DNA of 39,901 nt from Fragilaria crotonensis. Its lineage: Eukaryota; Bacillariophyta; Fragilariophyceae; Fragilariales; Fragilariaceae. Shown piece after piece: positions 10,223 through 35,378 of the stretch. The stretch covers positions 1 through 39,901 of the forward strand of contig JAKSYS010000589.1 in assembly GCA_022925895.1 (NCBI GenBank), given 5' to 3'. A model generated the notes under the pieces. It had not been told where the DNA came from. It saw only the letters and a program-made list of their open reading frames with translations, and did no database searches. The position numbers were made by a program, and so were the translations under genes. The first letter of the stretch is position 1. Each line of letters begins with the position of its first letter.

Positions 10223-11215
10223 TTAGTAGACGGAGTACTGGCGCACTAGGTGCTGTGGGTTGTCATACGAAGCCTGCACAGTTAAGAAACGCAACACAGG
10301 TGTGAGTGGAGCTGGGGCAAGAGAAAATCCTTGGAAACAAGTTACCAGAAGATCCATTTCCGCAGCAGTCACGTCATCCTTGCTAATAGAAAGTGCTTCG
10401 AAATAAGGAATCAGGAGATTAACTTCTTCATCGGAAGATTCCCAATCCATGGGATCGTCGATCTCTTCTTCTGTCTCGTCTTCGAAGCATGGAATCAGGA
10501 GATTAACTTCGTCATCGGACGATTCCCAATCCATGGGATCCACGGTTTCTCTGTATTTCCAATACATGGGATCGTCAATTTCCGTGGGCTCCCAATCCAT
10601 GGGAACGGGATCCTCGATTTCCGTGGATTCCCAATCCATGGGAATGGGATCGTCAATTTCCGAGGATTCCCAATCCATGGGAATGGGATCCTCAATGTCC
10701 GTGGATTCCCAATCCATTGGAATGGGATCCTCAATCTCCGTCGATTCCCAATCCATGGGAATGGGATGGTCAATTTCCGTGGATTCCAAATCCATGGGAA
10801 TGGAATCCTCAATGACTGGGACAAGGGGGGTCACGGGTGTGGCGGGCCAACGTGGACTAGCACGTAAAATAGATCTGGGATTTTTGGCATAATTGTTCGG
10901 AGTGTTCGTGGGAAGCCATGGGAATCCAAACTGGTTCAAGTTCGAGGGGGGTGGCGGAGCATGAGCGTTGCGGGGTGCACTGGCATAGTTCGTCGGCGTG
11001 TTCAATGGGAAGCCAAACTGGTTCAAGTTCAAGGGGGGTGACGGAGCACGAGGGTTGCAACGTGAAGTCGCATAGTTGGTCGGAGTGTTCCAATTGAAGT
11101 TCGAGGGGGGTGGTGGAGCATGAGCTTCCGAAGGCGCACTCGCATGCTTTGGGAAGCCGAACCAATTGAAGTTCGAGGGGGGTGGAGCATTGGGGGGATC
11201 GGTAGGGGCGCACAT
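10223..11215 (-). CDS. Low-complexity repeat protein (PPPSN / PMDWES repeats)
   Basis: The uninterrupted frame of about 330 codons begins MCAPTDPPNAPPPSNFNWFG. The first third has four degenerate copies of a proline-rich unit (APPPPSNFNW... with GFP and TPTNYA). The rest is an acidic array built on DPIPMDWEST with EIE spacers, about nine copies, ending in variants that add NLLIP. The acidic part is encoded by a 39-bp minisatellite. No domain or signal peptide is seen. The regular Trp and acidic pattern suggests a linear-motif array, but function is unknown. The open frame could extend upstream to 11389, but that stretch reads as untranslated leader (ITITKNITININN). A transcript would be needed to show it is expressed. 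Confidence 0.5.
   Translation of the reverse strand: MCAPTDPPNAPPPSNFNWFGFPKHASAPSEAHAPPPPSNFNWNTPTNYATSRCNPRAPSPPLNLNQFGFPLNTPTNYASAPRNAHAPPPPSNLNQFGFPWLPTNTPNNYAKNPRSILRASPRWPATPVTPLVPVIEDSIPMDLESTEIDHPIPMDWESTEIEDPIPMDWESTDIEDPIPMDWESSEIDDPIPMDWESTEIEDPVPMDWEPTEIDDPMYWKYRETVDPMDWESSDDEVNLLIPCFEDETEEEIDDPMDWESSDEEVNLLIPYFEALSISKDDVTAAEMDLLVTCFQGFSLAPAPLTPVLRFLTVQASYDNPQHLVRQYSVY
10585..10812. repeat. 39-bp coding minisatellite
   Basis: The word CCCAATCCAT or a close variant recurs at 10591, 10630, 10669, 10708, 10747 and 10786, an exact 39-base period. More diverged units extend left to about 10435. The unit length is a multiple of three, so copy number changes keep the minus-strand frame. 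Confidence 0.85.
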
Positions 11216-24793: not shown

Positions 24794-25492
24794 CAGGCTT
24801 TGGAAAAATAATACTGCATACTGGTATCGACCTCCAATGTCGCACCAGTACGTATACTTCTACTGCAGTGGAGCTGCAGTACGTACTTCAGTATATCTAA
24901 GAGCTGCAGTATATACTGCAGTATCTTCCCACCGATGCTGCAAATACTGATACTGCAAGGGGAGCTGCAGTATTTACTGGTACTGCACAACAGTAACAGT
25001 AGCACAGTAGCGACTATTGGTACGACGCTAGCTGTATTGGCGAAGTCGCAAAATGCCAAATTGCAAAGTGCAAGTAGAATTAGTATTGTACTACTGTGTA
25101 CTGTAGTGGGACGAAGAAATTGTACAGATTTATGGATAAGAATGCAACTTAAACCGACACAAATAGTTACAAATTGACGTGATTGATAATTCTTGTGCAA
25201 GAAATAGTTACAAATTGACGTGATTGATAATTCTTGTGCAAGTCAGTTCTCGCACGATATTCCCAGTATTTCAAAATACTGCAAATACTGCAGTATCGTT
25301 TTCAGAGCTGGAGTATGGTTTTTTGTGGAGCTGCAGTATGGTTCTACTGCTCTGGAGCTGCAGTATATTTTTTTACTTACTGCGCGAGAGCTGCAGTACG
25401 TATTACTTACTGCCATGGAGCACAAGTATACTGGTATGGTATACTGCAGTATCCAGTATACTTATGTACCAGTATATTTTTTCCAAAGCCTG
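24794..25492. repeat. Foldback-like segment with inverted ends and six GAGCTGCAGTA motifs
   Basis: A 15-base core CAGGCTTTGGAAAAA (24794-24808) recurs inverted at 25478-25492, with partial similarity continuing inward to TACTGGTA. Inside, GAGCTGCAGTA occurs at 24871, 24901, 24962, 25328, 25355 and 25388. It may be a degraded non-autonomous element; no target duplication was identified. Confidence 0.5.
25161..25242. repeat. Perfect 41-bp tandem duplication
   Basis: Copies 25161-25201 and 25202-25242 are identical, beginning AAATAGTTACAAATTGACGT. Confidence 0.97.
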
Positions 25493-25677: not shown

Positions 25678-25887
25678 ACGGCGGGATGCGTAGCCTTTCC
25701 CGCCTCAGTGGCGGTCGACTACCTAACGGGGTTTGTAGGAGTAGGATGAGGTACCGCCACAGTGTCCAGTACAATAATAGTGCAATAGTATGGAATGGTG
25801 TTGGTGGCATCTTTACTAAGAATTACCACGCCATCCATCCTGTAGGACGGTAGCACTAGTAGTATAGTGCCTATCGTACTCGTTCGG
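25678..25887 (-). repeat. Terminal split repeat B2
   Basis: This 210-base stretch is identical to B1 at 26165-26374 with a constant offset of 487. It forms the 3' end of the element. Confidence 0.95.
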
Positions 25888-25901
25888 AGGGGGCGGGCGG
25901 G

Positions 25902-26168
25902 TAAATTAAGCTGTAGTAACTTGTGCAGCTACTAGTCCTTCACTCTTCGCACTCCGTGGGCAACCTGTCTCGTAGCAGGTTCCTCGATCGCCGTGCGAGA
26001 GGTTTCTTGTTGCCGCAACTTGGTTACAACTAACAATGAGGATTCGTCGCCAGGTCTCGTTTCAAGTGCCGAATTTGGTGTCTACTTCCCGTGACGCGCC
26101 GAATCTGATTCTGACGCATCGTGGTGTGTGTGGCATCCCCGACCGTCCGTCTTCCCTGCCACTGACGG
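25902..26168 (-). repeat. Split repeat A2
   Basis: 267 bases matching A1 (31820-32088). Differences are a 2-base indel near the start, one C/T substitution, and indels in a T run, a TG run and a C run. Confidence 0.95.
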
Positions 26169-26374
26169 CGGGATGCGTAGCCTTTCCCGCCTCAGTGGCG
26201 GTCGACTACCTAACGGGGTTTGTAGGAGTAGGATGAGGTACCGCCACAGTGTCCAGTACAATAATAGTGCAATAGTATGGAATGGTGTTGGTGGCATCTT
26301 TACTAAGAATTACCACGCCATCCATCCTGTAGGACGGTAGCACTAGTAGTATAGTGCCTATCGTACTCGTTCGG
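26165..26374 (-). repeat. Internal split repeat B1
   Basis: An exact copy of B2. It overlaps the end of A2 by the shared ACGG, and lies just after the recombinase stop on the element strand. Confidence 0.95.
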
Positions 26375-26434
26375 CCCAAAGGGGGCCAAAGGCTGGAGTT
26401 GGGAGGGTGCCGAAGGCAGGGTGGGAGTCGGCGG

Positions 26435-27600
26435 TTATGGTGGTGTGAGGCGGAAGGCGCCTCCACGGAGCATGGCCGCAGAAAGACCATTCATAACCGG
26501 CTGGGCTTGCACATGCAAGTAGCGGTACATCTCGTCGGACCGCCACCGACCCACCATGCGGATGCGGTCGGAGTCGACGCCAGCACAAAGGAGGGCCATG
26601 GCACCGCCGGCGCGGGTGGAACGCACCGTGACGTCGGCGACCGCGTATGCAGGGTCCGGATGGACCAGTAGAGCAGTGCGAATGCGAGTAGTGATGTCCG
26701 ACGGTAAGATGTGCCGGAATGGGCTGTCCGGGTGAACGCGCACAGCATTGAGGGGCGTATCCGGAGTGGCTCCGCTGCGGCGCAAGGTGGCGACGCGAGC
26801 GGCCAAGCAATGTACGGGGCAAAGGAAGGTGACCAGAGCGGCCGTGGCCAATAGTTTCGTTGCGAACGCCATTCTTCTGGGTCGTGAAAGTCAACGTGGC
26901 AAAGGTGGCCGCGGAGAGGTCGTCGTCGGGGCAAGTGACAGTATCAAGTGCCCGCGAGCCAACCCACAACGTGACGTCGCGAAGCCGAAAGAGGGGGCCT
27001 GCGCCGGAAACAGGGGAGTGCCCAGATACTCACCCGGTCGAAGCAGGAAGTAGAACCCGACGACCAAGCATTCTGCCACGGCGATCGCAAGGGCGGAGGG
27101 CGTTTGGTGAGCGAGCGCCCATACTTGCGCCACCACGGAGACCGGGGAGGGTTTGACGCGACTCGGAGGGACATCTTCGCGTCCCCACGCACGATACAGG
27201 GCCGTGAGGCGAATGTCCACATCGCCATGGTGGTTCAGGCGAGGGTCAGAGGCCCCCAGCCGGGCGTACGCCTGACCCACCGCTCGTACGGCGTCCTCCA
27301 CCGTCCGAGAGCGGACAGGTTGACGGCCGGGAGCAATGGAGCCGGTACGGTACCGTTGGGCAAAGAGTTGGAGCAATGGGACGGGATCGGTGTTGCCGAG
27401 ATGTCGGGGGTCCACGTGTAGGGAGGCGCAGAAGGTTTCCCATAGGCGCCAACTGGTGTCGGCCGAGGCCGCGCGTTGCCGAGAAACCCGTCCGGCGGAC
27501 GTTTCCTGAAGAGCGCACCAGTCAAGGAGGCATTGGTGTCGGGTCGCAGCCGGCGCAGCACCCAAGAACGCACCTGTGGATAATGCGCTTGAAAGTGAGT
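26435..27600 (-). pseudogene. Tyrosine recombinase of the retrotransposon (frame broken)
   Basis: The phage-integrase-type recombinase that would insert the circular cDNA. The N-terminal core-binding part includes SWRLWETFCASLHVDP and the RTVEDAVRAVGQAYARLG region. The catalytic part begins with GFYFLLRPGEYLG (first Arg box). It ends with VRSTRAGGAMALLCAG (second Arg region), IRMVGRWRSDEMYRYLH (W/H-R box and catalytic Tyr) and a short tail. Frame changes near 27540, 26950 and 26850 separate the pieces; the intermediate frame still reads family-like (TFATLTFTTQKNGVR, LCPVHCLAARVATLR). It lies directly downstream of RNase H on the same strand. The position of its start is uncertain. Confidence 0.82.
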
Positions 27601-29590
27601 CACGAGTTGTGCATCAGATAACTCCCAGAGACGGCTGGCATCGTCGGCCATGGCATTCACCGGGCCAGGAATATAATGGTGACGGGCCAATAGCGATGAT
27701 GCCGTTGGTGTACGGCATTGTACTGGAGAAGATATGCGCGGGCAGCGAGCGACGTTGCTGACCCTTTCGTGGACCACGCGACCGCTGCGCGGTTATCGCT
27801 CGCAATCCATATCGTGTGTTCGCGCACGTCGTGGCAATGCACAAGGACATCTTTGTGGGCAATTATGCCTGTCAACTCCAAATCGGATATAGACAAAGAG
27901 CCCTCGCGGTTGTCCGAAGTGACCAGTGCTTCCGCAACATGTGGCGCGAAGCGTTGGCGCCACACGATTGGCGGTTGGTCGCCCTCACTGGATAACCACA
28001 CACCCCCCATGCCAGTTTGACAGGCATCGCAGGCACCGACATAGGACGGTGCGGTGGGAACAAGTTCCTGCAGCCGCGTGGGACGCTCGGCCAAGGAATC
28101 AACGAGTGCAGTGAAGTCGGCGGCGGCATCATACACTTGCCGATTCAAACGCACCCGCCGTTTGTCTCCGCGACTAAGGGCCTCCTGGAGCACGGAGAAG
28201 AGCCCTCGTGTGCCCGGGAGGGCCGGAGACATGGACCGTAGCTCTCCTAGTAGCTGGTGCCACTTGGCAACGGCTAGGCGTTTGCGTGGTGGCTGGAGCC
28301 AGCCGAGGACAGTGCGTAGACGTTCGAGGCGATGCGGTGGCAGATTCAAGGTCATGGTTTGGGAGTCGATGTCCCACCCCAGGATGCGCTTTTGTGTCAT
28401 CCAATAGGCGTCGCCTTTCAAGAATTTCTTGACCGATGCAGGCTCTTTGCGATGGGGCGGGTCGCCCTCGTCCAACGGACGAAAAACGCGATCAATGGAG
28501 TGTAAGGCGGCCCTCAACACTCGTCGTTGCTGGTGCTTCGTCTGTGCCAGCAACAGAAAGTCGTCGACGTATACGTCGACCGCGGCGACGGGCTTGCTTG
28601 GCCGCGATGTTCCTGCTGCGGCACGAGACGTGTTCGCAGGGGGACGGTCACGTGAAAACCGGCTGGAGGTGTGGCGGCCACTGCCTCCAGCCGGTGTGAA
28701 TCCCACAGGCACCGATCCCTGTTCGAAGCATCTGATTGGCCACGTCACATGCTGTTTCGGTAAGTATCGTGAAGTATGGCGGCGATTCCACCCAGCCCAT
28801 CGGGAGGGCCAGCGGAAAGGCTATAATTGGTTCGTGTCCAGGGATACAAGGTAACACGACGCCTAATTTTGGGATGTCCTCTATTCTCACCCAGACTCGA
28901 TAGAACCCGTCTGCAATGTCAATCTTTGCCATGTATACAGGTCCATGCCTTGGATCTGCGTGGACCAGGGTGCTGCAAACCCTCTGAAGTGCTCGCCCAA
29001 ATTGCATGGCTTCCCGTGGCGCTAGCTGGAGCGTCTCCTCGTTAAGCTTGGAAAAAGTATAGTCCACAATAAGCCGTGGGCGTCGATCTCGTTGCGGACG
29101 ACGCCCAGAGGCGACACCCGTAAGTGCAGCTGGCGCACGGCCCGGTAGGGCATTACGATCCAATATCCTTGGGCACAAAGTCCAGCATCTCCTCACAGAC
29201 GAATTGTCGCTCGCCGGCGGACGAGCGGTGGGCACCGCGCGTCACCGCTCCGTCGCGGCGTTCAATCGGCCACGCTGGTGTGTGTACGGGCACCGTTGCG
29301 CCCCGCTTCTTCAGATGAGTCAATAGACGGGCTGCGCGGTGGGATAGTTGGCCCACCGTTGGGGTGATGTCGGACTTCCCGCGTGCCAACGCGACGGTAC
29401 GGACCCACCCATGTGTTGCGAAAAGCTTTTCGGTTACCACTGCTAACTTACCAAGTGCGGCTTCGGCTTCCGAGATCTGGTCTGCTCTTCGCTTACGGGT
29501 GGCGCCGTCGCCTACCCCCACCTCCGTCCCCAAGTCATTCAGTCGCGCCGTCGTCGCTGCCCACGGTGGTGCTGCAAGTAGCCAGGGCAC
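27600..29590 (-). pseudogene. Reverse transcriptase-RNase H of the retrotransposon (frame broken)
   Basis: The N-terminal region has ERQFVCEEMLDFVPKDI, then RPRLIVDYTFSKLNEETLQL (RT motif 1), VYMAKIDIADGFYRV (motif A with catalytic Asp), LALPMGWVESPPYF (motif B) and VYVDDFLLLAQ (motif C, YVDD). Thumb and connection follow (TQKRILGWDIDSQTMTLNLP). RNase H supplies the acidic triad in SYVGACDACQTGMGG, ISDLELTGI and WIASDNRAAVAW. The segment HYIPGPVNAMADDASRLW ends the domain in the next frame. Frame changes fall near 29165, 28710 and 27680. The MADDASRLW end and the absence of protease or integrase fit DIRS-like elements. Confidence 0.88.
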
Positions 29591-29888
29591 ACTCGTCGTG
29601 TCACCCTGGCCGTCCCGTCAGGTGGCGGGTGCTTGGAGGCGCTCACGAACATAAGCAAGGAGGCGACTTCGCTCTCCCGCCGAGGCGAATGGCGTGTGAG
29701 TCGCTCGCCTGCCGCAGTTAGGGAAACATCCGCCTTTCGTCCACCATGCCACGCAGAACTCTTGACCAGCATCATTTGATGGGGGGCGGTGCTCACGTAA
29801 GATATTGCGTGTGCCCCCTGCGCGTAGCGGGATGTTGGCGATTCAGCGTCACCCGCTGGATTCTCGACGCGGGTGACGCTGGTTCTCG

Positions 29889-31787
29889 TCACTGTCGGTG
29901 TCTCGCCTGAGGGTGTGCTAAGCGACGACACCCCTGCGTGTCGATGCGTACGTTATGGTGGTGGAACCACTCTCCGCCGGCACTACTGCCAGTCATAGAC
30001 CGCTGTGGCGGTACGGGGTCGAGATACGCTTCCGGGATGTCGACCCAATTTGTTGAGTTATGGAAAGTGCCACGCTTTAGCTCCTGCAGCATTACGGTGA
30101 AGTTCGGCACTTCCACACCGATGACTCCATCGGCAATGTTATGAGCTACCATCTGCATGTACTCGTGCGTGCAAACTTGCACGGCACGTACGATGCGCGC
30201 ATGATAGGTAGGTGCGACTGATGGGTGCCTGCTTGCAAGGGCGTGGTATCGCTCCGTGACGAACGGGGCCGCATTCTGGAACCCCGCGACCATCGACCAC
30301 ATTGCCTCAACGAACGGGTGAGTAGCCCCCACTCCTTGAAAGAGACACTGGCACAGTACTGCATACCTCGTCAAGGTAATCCCCACTTCCAGAATATCTC
30401 GCGGGAACTTAATGCCCCTTTCGCGTAGGGTGCGGTAGTCAGATAAACTGGCGTTCTGCTCGCCTTGCGCCAATTGGTTTCAACGCTCGCATCTGCTAAG
30501 GCCAGATAATGGTGGGCGCTGCCAGAGTAGGCAACCAAGAACGGTTGGCATCCCGAGGAAAGGTCGTCTACCCATGTCCCACAAACTGGAAACCGACAAC
30601 CATTTGCTTCAGGAGGGTGGTGATGATTGGTGCATACAACTCTGACGACAGACCTCGAGACATACACACCTTTTGTAATTCCTGGGTGAGCACAGTGTGC
30701 TGCTCGCTCTTGTGGCAATTTGCAAGGCGGGTCCACACTGGCGCTACGCTCTCAGGGGTTGCCACATTGCAATAGCGGAGAAGCGTCGTATACGTCTCGT
30801 TGTAGGCGTCGGCGATGGTCTTGACTTCGCGTTCGGCACGCCCGCCGTCGCCACCTCGCCCTAGTGTGTCACCCCCCCTGGCCATCCCCAGGGTACGTAG
30901 AAGTACAGCGGCGGCATCTCCTCCACCCGGTCCTTGGGGCGCTGCTAATGCTGGGAGATCCGCCTGTACCTTCATGTTGACGTAGCGGTACGCTTCTCGT
31001 GGTAGGTGGAGTGGTGGAAACGTGAGTACACTGGGTACAGCGTTAAGTGGACCCCACCTCCACGTGCCGTGCACGCTGCACGCAACCACGCGATTACGTC
31101 CTGACAGGCCTCCGTTTCGTGTTGTGCTTGTATTGCACTCACGATGTCCTGATATGCTTGTTTGGGCCGCACCCTATTCCGATGAATCAGAAGGGCGGCG
31201 TAGCGACCCGGGAGGAGCTGAATGTGCCTTGTGCGGATGACTTCTGTTTCCGGATCTTGTTCGGTGTAGGGTCCCAGAACTTGCTGTGCCTCCTCCCACG
31301 TGGGTAGGAGCGTAGTCATCGCAGCCACAGTGGGAACCCGTACAGCTGTCCCTACTAGATGGAAGGCGGAACCTTGACTTCGACAGTTGGGTACTGGTGA
31401 GGTAAGATGTCCCCAACGAAGCCCAGTACATGATCATGAAGTCCCGTGGGCTCGTCACCGGGCGCATCCACATACCGGAGCATGCGGTGCACGATGACCA
31501 CCTCTAGCCCATCATCCCGCCCCGTAAAGTGCGAGGAATGCCATGGGTTGACGGTCACTGAGTGCAATGGTTTGATCTTTAAGGGCCGCCGGTGTTGGCA
31601 CCGCCCTCCAGGGTCAGTGAAGCGATACCCCGCCAGGTAAGCTGCGGTACGTGCTTCCGGCGGGTTGTTGGTTGCATCACTATACAACTCACGATACGTA
31701 CGAGGGGCTACACCTTCCCGCGCGGCAGGTAGGTCCCCGGCCCTAGAGGGGTCCGGCGATGGCGTGCGGATCTACCAGTTGGGCCAT
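29889..31787 (-). pseudogene. Gag-like first ORF of the retrotransposon (frame broken)
   Basis: The likely start is the Met at 31787 (MAQLVDPHAIAG), just inside A1. Family-like text then continues through several frames: ELYSDATNNPPEARTAAYLA, GLHDHVLGFVGDILPHQYP, TTLLPTWEEAQQVLGPYTEQ, TIADAYNETYTTLLRYCNVA, GVEVPNFTVMLQELKRGTFH. Frame changes occur near 31755, 31375, 31010, 30590 and 30470. No zinc knuckle was seen. Identification rests on position upstream of RT and similar length and composition to first ORFs of DIRS-like elements, not on a domain. Confidence 0.55.
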
Positions 31788-31819
31788 GGTGCGGTGTCGC
31801 CTCTGTGCTCAACTGAGTC

Positions 31820-32088
31820 TAAATTAAGCTGTAAACTTGTGCAGCTACTAGTCCTTCACTCTTCGCACTCCGTGGGCAACCTGTCTCGTAGCAGGTTCCT
31901 CGATCGCCGTGCGAGAGGTTTCTTGTTGCCGCAACTTGGTTACAACTAACAATGAGGATTCGTCGCTAGGTCTCGTTTCAAGTGCCGAATTTTGGTGTCT
32001 ACTTCCCGTGACGCGCCGAATCTGATTCTGACGCATCGTGGTGTGCGTGTGGCATCCCCCGACCGTCCGTCTTCCCTGCCACTGACGG
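31820..32088 (-). repeat. Terminal split repeat A1
   Basis: The 269-base 5' end of the element, nearly identical to A2. It ends outward in ACGG like the A2/B1 junction. Confidence 0.95.
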
Positions 32089-32565
32089 TTATCGAATCTC
32101 GAGAGAGGTGCTGTTCACACACCTTCCGACACCAACTATCGGTAAACTGCCACCAGCGACCAGCGACCACCCAGGTCCGAACTGCAAAAAGCACCATCAC
32201 GCACAGACCAGGTACAAAGTCGCATCGAGTGCAACGGAGGAACAACCTCAAAGGCATCATGCTCATGTTTTCAGTCCCAGCATCATTGCCTCTCGTTTAT
32301 TGTATGGTCTACAGCTAGTCCGTATACAGTGCTGTACAGTGAAGCAAAACCACAAATTCGACAATCGCAGTCAACCTTTCGTCGATTGGATCAAGCTTCT
32401 TCCGCATCTGTGCAACACAAAGGCATTCAAAACACTGGACTTGCCGTCATTTTTTCAAGATGATGGTCGATCGCGGCCACCGAGAGCCACAGAAATGATA
32501 CAAATATCACGATTCCAGCCCCAGCAACCGACAAAGCCTCGAGAGCAACAAATGATGGAGTAGCA
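32089..32565. other. Flank right of the retrotransposon
   Basis: Short chance ORFs only. It may be part of the same disrupted low-complexity gene that becomes visible from 32566. Confidence 0.3.
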
Positions 32566-32946
32566 ACGCAGCCTCCAACAAACCACCTCGAAAGAAGAAG
32601 TCACGGGCTCCAACGTCTAGTCCGATTTCGCCCTGTAGATGACGATACTGTTGGCGATGATGCCGCACCCGACACTGCCACGAAAGCAAAAAGTGATGAG
32701 GTCATCACGCAGCCTCCAACAGCCACCTCGAAAGAAGTCGCGGGCACCAACGCCTAGTCCGACTTCGCCCCCTAGATGACGATACTCTTGGCGATGATGC
32801 CGCACCCGACGCTGCCCAAACAAACAACTGATGAAGTCACGCAGCCCAAGTCGAAAGAAGTCGCGGGCTCCAACTCCCAGTCCCTCTGCGCCCCCTATAG
32901 ATGACGATACTCTTGGCGATGATGCTGCAACAATCGAGACAGATGC
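32566..32946. repeat. Three tandem repeats of about 110-140 bp
   Basis: Units start ACGCAGCC at 32566, 32707 and 32839 and each contains TAGATGACGATACT followed by TTGGCGATGATG. In one frame or another they encode KKSRAPTPSP and IDDDTLGDDAA. Lengths differ by non-multiples of three. Confidence 0.8.
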
Positions 32947-33226
32947 ACCTGCAGTAGATATAAAGCCACCAGTTCCTCTTCTTGTTCCTACCCCCTTCCT
33001 GTGCAACCTGTTCCTCCTACAACGGCACCGACATCACATAAGCCTACGATCTCTCAGTATCTATCCCATCCAATACTCCAACGTACCCAAGGATTACAAC
33101 AGTGCAACCTCGCCGGTTTATGTTCCAATCGACGACGATCCTATTGTTACTCAAGATAAAGAGGTTGAAGAAGATAAGGAGGAAGTTGAGCTTGATATGT
33201 TCAAACCGAAGCAAGACTGCTGGTAG
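32831..33226 (+). CDS. Low-complexity Ser/Pro and acidic protein, probable gene remnant
   Basis: The open frame begins MKSRSPSRKKSRAPTPSPSA, then IDDDTLGDDAATIETD, and ends KEVEEDKEEVELDMFKPKQD. The first part is the last unit of the tandem repeat. The upstream units carry the same peptide but in different frames, so the original gene was longer. After the stop the same frame continues with a hydrophobic, TM-like stretch (WILLALCGMIFTAYQMSENP), which suggests a nonsense or frame break rather than a true end. The family is not recognised. Position next to a retrotransposon and repeat structure suggest a decayed or mobile-element-related gene. Confidence 0.35.
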   Translation: MKSRSPSRKKSRAPTPSPSAPPIDDDTLGDDAATIETDAPAVDIKPPVPLLVPTPFLCNLFLLQRHRHHISLRSLSIYPIQYSNVPKDYNSATSPVYVPIDDDPIVTQDKEVEEDKEEVELDMFKPKQDCW

Positions 33227-33230
33227 CATT

Positions 33231-35378
33231 GGATTTTGCTGGCCCTCTGTGGAATGATATTTACGGCTTATCAAATGTCTGAAAATCCGGACGGCATCTA
33301 TGCTAGTGTGTCGTTTGGCAATTACCATCATTGGATGCGCATTTAAATTGATCTTGATGCCGTGCCGCAATTTCTTGGGGTATCGATATCATGCGGGACA
33401 CATTCCTGTCAGTACCATGGAATACAGAGAACCATATCGAGGGGGCAATAGTGCCATGGAACTGACGTAGACGTTTGAACTATGGAAACAAAGCGTTCGG
33501 TGACATTTTCAATTTGCTCTGTATCTGGTAGATCATTGTCTGACCATTTGTGAGCAGCCGTCATTCATACCCATCCGCTGATGGCACAGGACCACCCTTG
33601 CAACAGTCCCGTAATATCAATCACATAGCACTATCACAACGTACGTTCAGTGCACAGCACCTGGCTCCTCCAATAAACTAGAGATGAGTCTCATGCTTTG
33701 ACCTTGTCGCATTGCATGTTCTCACGCAGAGGCGTCGTCGGTGCGTACTGATTATAGATTGATTTTCCCGCGGTTATGGAAATGAGTGCTGAATTTTCCC
33801 GAATCGCCATTATGTGGTGCAATAATCTAGCCCTAGCTAGATTCAACCTGATCAGCTGCGTGCCGATTGACAAGATCACCGTTCAGTCGATCGATGCCGA
33901 TGCGAATAACCTAGCCCTACTAGATTCAACCTGATCGATCCCTGCCGAGTGACGATCACCGATAAGTCGATCGGTTCCCATGCGCTCATCTGCCGGCGCC
34001 TCGAGCTCACCAACTTAACTTATTGAAGGGATGAAGTCACTCACCAAAACTACCTAGAACGGTATTGTACGCCAGTATTTGCGGTATTTTGTAATTTGTA
34101 GTAGTGCAATGACTTGTACACGCAGGGAGTGACTCTGAAAAAGTAGACTGCATCATCACTGTCTCTTCAACCACGGAATACTACCAACGTACGTCAAACA
34201 TATTTGGGATACGACCCATGTTTCCCACCGTTGTAACCAAGCCAAACAATAGCTTTACTAACCTGTATTTCAGAAGAATATGACCACTTCTCCTTCCATA
34301 GTAGCAAGTGAAGGGAACCCAGCCTATGCACCGTAGTAGCTACATCAACGAACCGTTTCTGATCGTGCCCATTTGAACATGGTACTTCAAAATACAGAAG
34401 ACATACATATCCAAGCTATTCACATATCATCAAAAGGACTAGCTAGCAACACAAAAATCACCAATCACTAGCAGGATTTTGGAATCGAAGGCAAAACCAT
34501 TGGTCAAGCTTTCTCAGGTTGCCGTCATTGCTAGACATGATCCTCAAACTCAATGATCCAAACCAATAGTTTCATTAGTTTGGCTGAATCATTAAACACC
34601 GGGTTGTCTATCCAAGGCAGCATCATGTTGCATCAAGCAAACCTACAACCTGAACTTCACCAGATGTCAACTTTCCAGTGAGTTTGTTCTAAAGCCACAC
34701 AAACTATGCACCAGTCACCGCCAGCACTAGATACTCACCCTTGTTGTGAATTAGGGTATCAGTATGGAACTGACCTCCTGGCAATTGCCATCATAAACTT
34801 GTTTCAAACATCATTTTTGACCAATGATGGAAACAAATCCAAAGTGTGCACACAGAATGTATAGAACAGCACTTTGACGTCTGATTGATACTTAAACAAG
34901 GCGTGATGCAAAAATATCATCTTAAGATGCAATCATCAGAAGGTGCAATATGGTAACTAAATTTACACATGTTAAGTGTTACCGGATAATGGGGTGTGTC
35001 TTTCCTGTTGTTACAATGTACATGGTTGAGTAAACAAATATGTTAACGCAAAAATATATTGTTACTTTGAACCATATTAGTGACATATTCATTTGTATAA
35101 TAAACATTTATGTTAAGTTCTTTTGCTTCTTGCTACGTTCTTATAATGTCAATTCACCATCTTTGTTAAGTGCATCCGTTGGAAAATGACCATATTTGTT
35201 GTCGTTTATGTTGCTTAGTAGATATATATGCCGTTGACTATGTTTCTTTGTAACTATATATGTTACTCCTAAATTCAATTGTACAAATCACAATTGTTGA
35301 TTAAATCCACCTATATTGTTTCATTACGAGTTGCTGATGTTGTTGTCACTTCTAACGAGAAGGCACCCGATGCAACGT
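33231..35378. other. Gene-free stretch of about 2.1 kb
   Basis: No ORF above chance, no family-like text and no RNA gene was recognised. It contains an imperfect direct repeat (33821-33980), and from about 34850 it becomes AT-rich. Stop codons are dense in all frames from 33900 to 35270. Confidence 0.5.
33821..33980. repeat. Imperfect direct repeat of about 80 bp
   Basis: Two copies start AATAATCTAGCCCTAG and AATAACCTAGCCCTAC and both contain TAGATTCAACCTGATC, GATCACCG and TCGATCG. They differ by substitutions and small indels. Confidence 0.75.

What the first reader, a model, noticed from the sequence alone, without database searches (positions are those of the whole stretch)
25678..32088. 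Complete-length split-direct-repeat tyrosine recombinase retrotransposon
The element has A1-internal-B1-A2-B2 ends with B1 and B2 identical over 210 bases and A1/A2 about 98% identical, and contains RT (YVDD), RNase H (D-E-D) and a tyrosine recombinase (R, GRWRS, Y). The near-identity of the repeats means recent insertion. PAT/Ngaro-type elements are much less described than Gypsy/Copia elements in algae with secondary plastids, so this could define a lineage.
Basis: partly seen in the sequence, partly recalled or inferred. Interest (0 to 1): 0.75.

Follow-up and report, generated by a model that had tools for sequence, protein, structure and literature searches.

The report
Diatom Ngaro-like retrotransposon with stop-codon readthrough
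This is a real, recently active jumping element of the little-studied tyrosine-recombinase kind in a diatom genome, and it and its relatives carry a virus-like 'leaky stop' signal (UGA-C plus a conserved RNA hairpin) that probably lets ribosomes read through from the particle-protein gene into the reverse-transcriptase gene.

Summary
Observation confirmed, on the minus strand: A1 (32088-31834), ORFs, B1 (26374-26165), A2 (26168-25918), B2 (25887-25678); B1=B2 over 210 nt, A1/A2 about 98%. The host is a diatom (silicon transporters). The genome holds an independent, nearly identical insertion and many diverged relatives; 12 of 12 further copies that I delimited have the same A1-ORFs-B1A2B2 ends. 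No methyltransferase was found, so by structure it is Ngaro-like, not PAT or DIRS1. Ngaro elements are published for brown algae and Cafeteria, so the type is not new. The window copy's broken frames look largely like assembly indels.

In the window's clade a hairpin starts at the 8th nt after the UGA (34 of 34 distinct junctions carrying the motif); its arms co-vary and beat a synonymous-codon null. This matches the viral 'type II' readthrough signal (UGA-CGG + stem-loop). A deep second clade keeps UGA-C without that hairpin. I found no report of this for tyrosine-recombinase retrotransposons; fission-yeast Gypsy elements use UGA-CU. Readthrough is predicted, not measured.

The parts
31834..32088 (-). 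A1, outer left repeat of the element (element 5' end at 32088)
29621..31771 (-). ORF1, gag-like region (frames interrupted by small indels in this copy); conserved C-x8-C-x3-C-x5-H knuckle near its end, beginning at 29755
   Evidence: open over 716-756 codons in L004, L012, L013, L016-L019
29618..29620 (-). in-frame UGA between ORF1 and ORF2, followed by CGG
29581..29610 (-). RNA hairpin GCCAGG...CCTGGC starting at the 8th nt after the UGA; predicted readthrough stimulator
27235..29617 (-). ORF2, reverse transcriptase + RNase H, same frame as ORF1 in intact relatives; interrupted in this copy
26435..27613 (-). ORF3, tyrosine recombinase, -1 frame relative to ORF2 in intact relatives and overlapping ORF2's end
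26165..26374 (-). B1 repeat
25918..26168 (-). A2 repeat (shares 4 nt with B1's end)
25678..25887 (-). B2, outer right repeat

Best explanation
A Ngaro-like tyrosine-recombinase retrotransposon of a diatom. One RNA is translated from ORF1 (gag-like). Most ribosomes stop at a UGA; a fraction read it as sense, because the stop is UGA-C and a stable hairpin begins 8 nt downstream, and so make a Gag-RT/RNase H fusion. RT copies the RNA, the split repeats let a closed circle be made with one A-B junction, and the recombinase inserts the circle at a short matching core (about CC/GG). Shown: repeat architecture, ORF order and frames, conserved UGA-C, conserved and co-varying hairpin, purifying selection after the UGA, independent near-identical insertions. 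Inferred: readthrough itself, recombinase activity, circular intermediate (from recalled knowledge of the family), how ORF3 is translated.
For: Architecture A1-ORFs-B1A2B2 in the window and 12 of 12 delimited copies. No methyltransferase in the ten ORFs scanned; no PF05869 match in the genome. UGA: of 52 fetched loci and the window, 42 junctions were located by an in-frame stop near a protein anchor, 41 of them UGA-C; 4 more (L039, L050, L058, L059) by a pattern that itself asks for UGA-C; 4 more by eye, all UGA-C; the exception is UGA-U (L053). 39 distinct junctions: 38 UGAC, of which 25 UGACGG. Hairpin 7 nt after the UGA in 34 of 34 distinct junctions with the GCCAGG motif; all 34 also have CCTGGC; arm-swap test: own arms -9.95 vs others' -5.25 kcal/mol, 0 of 20,000 permutations as good. 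Synonymous-codon null: mean z -2.37, 24 of 34 in the lowest 15 of 300; four downstream control windows (n 23-34) mean z -0.41 to +0.95. Pattern TGACGG-N4-GCCAGG-N14..40-CCTGGC: 34 genome matches, each on a contig with an RT match; reversed control 0. ORF2 codons 26-110: mean pN/pS 0.40, pN<pS in 15 of 15 pairs, while the first Met lies 119-162 codons past the UGA in 7 of 20 copies with ORF2 open over 700 codons. Published type II definition: UGA followed by CGG or CUA plus stem-loop about 8 nt 3' (PMC3542737, passages).
Against: No expression or protein data. The window's own hairpin is not significant under the synonymous null (L001, same sequence: 48 of 300); 10 of 34 junctions miss the lowest 15 of 300; the case rests on the family. 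Its arms also encode conserved residues (Q-G, P-W-L). Clade 2 (L018-L020, L042, L062) has UGA-C but no such hairpin in the predicted folds of 95 nt (z -1.2 to +0.6). L037, L048 and L054 lack the GCCAGG motif. In 13 of those 20 copies an earlier Met exists (codon 5 to 88), so re-initiation is not excluded for them; only two pairs in the pN/pS test have both first Mets beyond codon 110 (L030-L043 0.34, L016-L024 0.58). The recombinase is identified by motif: PF00589 only at E 0.017-0.04 in 2 of 15, PHROG 216 integrase at best E 0.0018 in 2 of 15, NCBIfam 0 of 15, comparison with XerD/XerC/FimB/FimE not significant (E 0.83), although the catalytic motifs align there. No useful PDB sequence match.
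Confidence: 0.82

Rival explanations
1. ORF2 is made without readthrough: by a separate promoter, splicing, or re-initiation after the UGA.
For: Precedent: in the fungal element Tca2 a gag UGA with a possible downstream pseudoknot did not direct readthrough in yeast reporters (PMC2194720, abstract and background). Some copies have a Met soon after the UGA (index 5-10 in L013, L019, L028, L042, L055).
Against: In 7 of 20 copies with ORF2 open over 700 codons the first Met is 119-162 codons in (L012, L016, L024, L034, L035, L038, L040), and codons 26-110 are under purifying selection, also in the two pairs whose first Mets both lie beyond codon 110 (pN/pS 0.34 and 0.58). The frame is kept across the stop; the stop is UGA in 50 of 50 read junctions and UGA-C in 49.
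Confidence: 0.1
2. The hairpin is a by-product of the protein sequence (GQGD...PWLL), not an RNA signal.
For: Outer arms encode conserved residues; 10 of 34 junctions are not in the lowest 15 of 300 synonymous randomisations.
Against: Arm-swap test 0 of 20,000, own arm the best of 34 in 12 elements and among the best six in 25; synonymous null mean z -2.37 vs about 0 in control windows; synonymous divergence is lower in codons 1-25 than in 26-110 in 15 of 15 pairs (pairs share loci).
Confidence: 0.06
3. UGA is read as selenocysteine or is a reassigned sense codon.
For: UGA is the only stop seen at this place.
Against: In intact copies ORF1 runs 716-756 codons and ORF2 735-1068 codons without another stop of any kind, so UGA is not a routine sense codon here; context and hairpin fit readthrough. 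No SECIS search was made.
Confidence: 0.03
4. The element is PAT-like, VIPER-like or a new class rather than Ngaro-like.
For: PAT, Ngaro and VIPER share split direct repeats (PMC6681497, passages); no reference phylogeny could be run here.
Against: PAT belongs to the MT-bearing DIRS group (PMC4157794, passages) and no MT was found; VIPER tables list Gag, YR, RT/RH in that order (PMC6681497; that this is the genomic order is recalled), here the order is Gag-RT/RH-YR.
Confidence: 0.15

Closest known systems
Ngaro retrotransposons of Cafeteria burkhardae (PMC8547959, passages) and Ectocarpus (PMC12477816, passages)
   Same: Cafeteria: A1-[ORFs]-B1A2B2 repeats; Gag-like, RT/RNase H and tyrosine recombinase ORFs; about 6 kb, GC-rich (here GC 0.57-0.62 against 0.45-0.49 nearby). 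Both hosts are stramenopiles.
   Different: The passages read describe no gag-pol UGA readthrough signal; ORF1-ORF2 frames of those elements were not examined here. In the window's clade the HxxR histidine is Arg (RSTR or RCTR in 22 of the 25 sequences with the motif, window included; HSLR in 3).
Type II viral readthrough signal (alphaviruses, tobra-, furo-, pomo-, pecluviruses, coltivirus; PMC3542737, passages)
   Same: UGA-CGG (25 of 39 distinct junctions) or UGA-CUA (1 of 39); extended stem-loop starting about 8 nt 3' of the stop.
   Different: Here in a DNA-integrated tyrosine-recombinase retrotransposon at the gag/pol border; 13 of 39 have other triplets after the UGA.
Fission-yeast Ty3/Gypsy elements Tj1, Tosmo1-3, Tcry1 (PMC10085805, passages)
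   Same: Gag and Pol in one frame separated by UGA followed by C (UGA-CT).
   Different: LTR elements with integrase; the passages read mention no downstream stem-loop.
Gammaretrovirus gag-pol readthrough (type III; PMC3542737, passages)
   Same: In-frame stop between gag and pol with a 3' RNA structure.
   Different: UAG-G with a compact pseudoknot.

Membership tests
Ngaro-like retrotransposon | Split direct repeats A1-ORFs-B1A2B2, internal repeats downstream of YR | tested here: met
   window and 12 of 12 delimited copies
Ngaro-like retrotransposon | RT and RNase H in one ORF | tested here: met
   RVT_1 in 10 of 12 ORF2 members, best E 2.4e-6, below Pfam's cut-off in the members whose scores were shown; RNase H by motif only
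Ngaro-like retrotransposon | Tyrosine recombinase ORF | tested here: inconclusive
   Motifs LLRPGEY, RSTR/HSLR, GRW, Y conserved in order; family matches weak
Ngaro-like retrotransposon | No DNA N-6-adenine methyltransferase | tested here: met
   none in ten ORFs; no PF05869 match in the genome
Ngaro-like retrotransposon | RT/YR phylogeny inside Ngaro | not testable with these tools
   no named references; no relatives found in viral contigs or genome contigs
PAT-like retrotransposon | Methyltransferase domain | tested here: not met
DIRS1-like retrotransposon | Inverted terminal repeats with internal complementary region | tested here: not met
   0 inverted repeats of 25 nt or more
VIPER-like retrotransposon | YR encoded before RT/RH (order as listed in PMC6681497; genomic order recalled) | tested here: not met
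   order is Gag-RT/RH-YR
LTR retrotransposon (Gypsy/Copia) | LTRs and DDE integrase | tested here: not met
   split repeats instead of LTRs; no integrase-core match in ten ORFs
Type II stop-codon readthrough signal | UGA followed by CGG or CUA | tested here: met
   window UGA-CGG; 25 CGG and 1 CUA of 39 distinct junctions
Type II stop-codon readthrough signal | Stem-loop starting about 8 nt 3' of the stop | tested here: met
   34 of the 39 distinct junctions, spacing constant; not in the 5 clade 2 junctions
Type II stop-codon readthrough signal | Measured readthrough | not testable with these tools
   needs a reporter or proteomics

The most novel reading that the evidence does not exclude
A whole radiation of diatom tyrosine-recombinase retrotransposons, in two very deep clades, uses graded translation: UGA-C readthrough sets the Gag: Gag-RT ratio, and a further, non-canonical -1 step reaches the recombinase, whose ORF has its first Met only at codon 100 or later in 12 of 17 copies with a separate -1 ORF3 and no X_XXY_YYZ site in 25 of 26 copies. 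Type II readthrough would then be a shared device of RNA viruses and this retrotransposon order, acquired independently or by exchange.
Probability: 0.35. Interest if true: 0.78.

Novelty: new variant of a known kind. Interest (0 to 1): 0.6.

Why it matters
I found no description of how tyrosine-recombinase retrotransposons set the ratio of Gag to enzyme in the listings and passages that I saw. Here the candidate signal is explicit, strongly conserved and directly testable with a short reporter. One genome offers 34 distinct versions of it, a natural set for learning which parts of a type II signal matter, and the near-identical independent insertion shows recent activity of such elements in a diatom.

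Tried and rejected
Phylogeny against DIRS/PAT/Ngaro/VIPER: no named references; pattern-based scans of viral contigs and genome contigs with the ORF2 alignment found no relatives. An internal tree of 23 ORF2 sequences (of 46 junction sequences; the others had fewer than 500 open codons) shows two clades but does not place them among known groups. Slippery heptamer for ORF3: within 330 nt from the RNase H end none in 25 of 26 copies; L018 has two. AlphaFold of a 151-aa window fragment of the recombinase: mean pLDDT 38, not used. PDB sequence searches: nothing of use. Empty site: the C526 flanks joined; C775 carries the right flank without the element but not the left one, C455 the left one but not the right; both carry the GG at the break. 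So a core is supported; a clean empty allele was not found. Rfam at the junction: no match. C773 as a second insertion: rejected, it shares the window's flanks. Clade 2 hairpin: not found. Counting: the nearest in-frame stop was TAG or TAA in L039, L054, L058, L059, L061 (out-of-frame copies) and none in L036 and L050; L039, L050, L058, L059 were then placed by a pattern that asks for UGA-C, L054 and L061 by eye, as were L037 and L048. Identical 70-nt junctions were merged (46 to 39). The 34-junction set was defined by GCCAGG near the stop, so only the constant spacing, the 3' arm and the pairing are results. Three loci have no located junction: L036 (cut by my own fetch; a junction is seen at C137:11528), L041, L047. 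The loci were chosen from the best RT matches, not at random. Of the papers in the listings most were not opened.
Full report
1. Observation. The reported feature is real and its coordinates are exact. It lies on the minus strand: A1 32088-31834, coding region, B1 26374-26165, A2 26168-25918, B2 25887-25678. B1 and B2 are identical over 210 nt; A1 and A2 are about 98% identical. RT, RNase H and recombinase motifs are present but in three frames; this copy is frame-broken. Compared with two other copies it shows few substitutions and many short gaps (7 and 6 mismatches, 23 and 27 gap openings in about 6440 nt). The shared host flanks are gap-rich too (58 gap openings against 13 mismatches over the whole 8512-nt alignment with C773), which looks like assembly error.

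2. Host and copies. The window is contig C546 of a 62.1-Mb genome in 881 contigs. Silicon-transporter matches are strong (19 to PF03842, 18 over the cut-off, best E 4e-193; matches come exon by exon); that this family marks diatoms is recalled. There are also many light-harvesting protein matches; one of these proteins, compared with the PDB, matched fucoxanthin proteins among others. I take the host to be a diatom. The A and B repeats recur on C773, C526 and, truncated at a contig end, C201. C773 shares the window's flanks, so it is an allele or duplicate. C526 has different flanks, and its copy differs from the C773 copy by 1 mismatch and 17 gap openings in 6449 aligned nt: an independent and recent insertion. 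A search with the window's RT gave 101 matching stretches in the genome, from near-identical down to 32-42% identity; several stretches can belong to one copy.

3. Architecture of the family. I delimited repeats in 12 further copies (L001, L002, L004, L012-L020); all 12 show A1-ORFs-B1-A2-B2, in L004 with an interrupted B2. In the window's clade A1 begins with CCGTCAG or a near variant and B2 ends with GCATCCCGC or a near variant, and the internal B1-A2 junction joins them, as expected if a circle with one A-B junction is the inserting form. The flanks of the C526 insertion meet other sequence elsewhere in the genome at the same GG. ORF1 is gag-like and ends in a cysteine/histidine knuckle. 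ORF2 carries RT and RNase H: RVT_1 in 10 of 12 members, best E 2.4e-6. ORF3 is the recombinase; in 17 of 20 copies with ORF2 open over 600 codons a long ORF in the -1 frame overlaps ORF2 by 349-796 nt, with the GRW motif in 14 of the 17; L012 is fused in frame. The recombinase call rests on motifs in the right order and on position. Database support is weak and a fragment fold failed. No methyltransferase was found in ten ORFs or in the genome.

4. The gag-pol border. In intact copies ORF1 and ORF2 are in one frame with a single stop between them. I examined 52 fetched loci and the window. By an in-frame stop near a protein anchor, 42 junctions were located, 41 of them UGA-C. Four out-of-frame copies (L039, L050, L058, L059) were placed by a pattern that itself asks for UGA-C, and four (L037, L048, L054, L061) by eye; L054 is decayed and L061 has a one-base slip. 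Three were not located (L036, L041, L047). In all, 50 read junctions: UGA in 50, UGA-C in 49; L053 has UGA-U. Of 39 distinct junctions (the four read by eye not counted) 25 are UGA-CGG, 4 UGA-CGA, 3 UGA-CUG, 2 UGA-CAG, 2 UGA-CGC, and one each UGA-CUA, UGA-CUC and UGA-UGG.

5. The hairpin. In 34 of the 39 distinct junctions GCCAGG lies near the stop; in all 34 it begins exactly 7 nt after the stop and is followed by CCTGGC after 15-42 nt. Between elements the inner part changes in sequence and length but stays paired. Exchanging 3' arms between elements weakens pairing from -9.95 to -5.25 kcal/mol on average, and none of 20,000 permutations reached the observed sum. Against a null that keeps the protein and draws synonymous codons, mean z is -2.37 and 24 of 34 fall in the lowest 15 of 300; four downstream control windows (29, 34, 32 and 23 usable sequences) give means of +0.95, -0.34, -0.06 and -0.41. 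The window's own hairpin alone is not significant by that test (identical L001: 48 of 300), though it is against dinucleotide shuffles of 50 nt (z -4.0; z -0.8 over 95 nt). Synonymous divergence is lower over codons 1-25 than over 26-110 in 15 of 15 pairs, the pairs sharing loci. A pattern for stop, spacer and arms has 34 matches in the genome, each on a contig with an RT match; the reversed control has none.

6. Is sequence after the UGA translated? Codons 26-110 of ORF2 have mean pN/pS 0.40 (0.33-0.73), with pN below pS in 15 of 15 pairs. In 7 of 20 copies with ORF2 open over 700 codons the first Met is 119-162 codons after the UGA; in the other 13 it is at 5-88. In the two pairs whose first Mets both lie beyond codon 110 the ratio is 0.34 (L030-L043) and 0.58 (L016-L024). 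This favours readthrough over re-initiation without excluding it everywhere. Intact copies have no other in-frame stop over 716-756 codons of ORF1 and 735-1068 of ORF2, so UGA is not a routine sense codon.

7. Comparison with what is known. The viral type II readthrough signal is defined as UGA followed by CGG or CUA, mostly with a 3' structure, often an extended stem-loop beginning about 8 nt 3' (PMC3542737, passages). The diatom junctions fit this closely. Gag-pol readthrough in retroelements is known for gammaretroviruses (UAG) and proposed for fission-yeast Gypsy elements with UGA-CT (PMC10085805, passages). Tca2 warns that a UGA with a structure need not work alone (PMC2194720, abstract and background). 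For tyrosine-recombinase retrotransposons I found no report: 'ngaro' with 'readthrough' in 0 papers, and nothing on point in the listings, most of whose papers I did not open. The library lacks most subscription papers; I did not see the original Ngaro descriptions. Fungal Ngaro elements are described with the YR ORF in the same frame as RT-RH or frameshifted (PMC3783388, passages), which agrees with ORF3 here.

8. Membership. By structure it is Ngaro-like: split direct repeats, Gag-RT/RH-YR order, no methyltransferase found. It does not meet the defining features of PAT, DIRS1, VIPER order or LTR elements. Phylogenetic placement was not testable. Ngaro elements are published for Ectocarpus (15 families, PMC12477816, passages) and Cafeteria (PMC8547959, passages), so a stramenopile Ngaro is not new in itself. 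Within this genome a second clade (L018, L019, L020, L042 in the tree; L062 by similarity) is separated by very long branches; it keeps UGA-C, has HSLR in the 3 sequences with the motif where the others have RSTR or RCTR (22 of 25, window included), and lacks the hairpin.

9. Open points. How ORF3 is reached is unknown: no X_XXY_YYZ heptamer in 25 of 26 copies, and its first Met is at codon 100 or later in 12 of 17 copies, after the conserved N-terminal part of the recombinase has begun. Readthrough, Gag function and recombinase activity are predictions.

Noticed in passing
window 32259-33500 (+); L001 6678-8036: A host reading frame with imperfect ~137-nt repeats (PPTKPPRKKSRAP...DDDTLGDDAA) and, by eye, a signal-peptide-like start lies about 170 nt right of the element's A1 end; open over 453 codons in the C773 allele, broken in the window. 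The element sits just upstream of it.
   Followed up: partly
L012 (C317), L040 (C20): ORF2 and ORF3 are fused in one frame in L012 (1068 codons), and L040 has a 947-codon ORF2 without a separate ORF3, whereas 17 of 20 copies have a separate -1 ORF3.
   Followed up: no
L018, L019, L020, L042, L060, L062: A second, very divergent clade of split-repeat elements with UGA-C at the gag-pol border, an HSLR box and a different CCCH knuckle, without the hairpin.
   Followed up: partly
L037, L048: Two related loci keep UGA-C but lack GCCAGG; by eye another hairpin (CCGGGTGC...GCACC..CCCGG) may replace it. Not tested.
   Followed up: no
window 25161-25242: Perfect 41-bp tandem duplication, about 435 nt left of the element.
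   Followed up: no
window 10566-11185: ORF on the minus strand with 39-nt repeats (IPMDWESTEIEDP units) and 72-87-nt repeats.
   Followed up: no
C546 vs C773: Two versions of the same locus differ mostly by short gaps, including in the host flanks: an indel-rich assembly, so frame breaks in this genome should be judged with care.
   Followed up: partly
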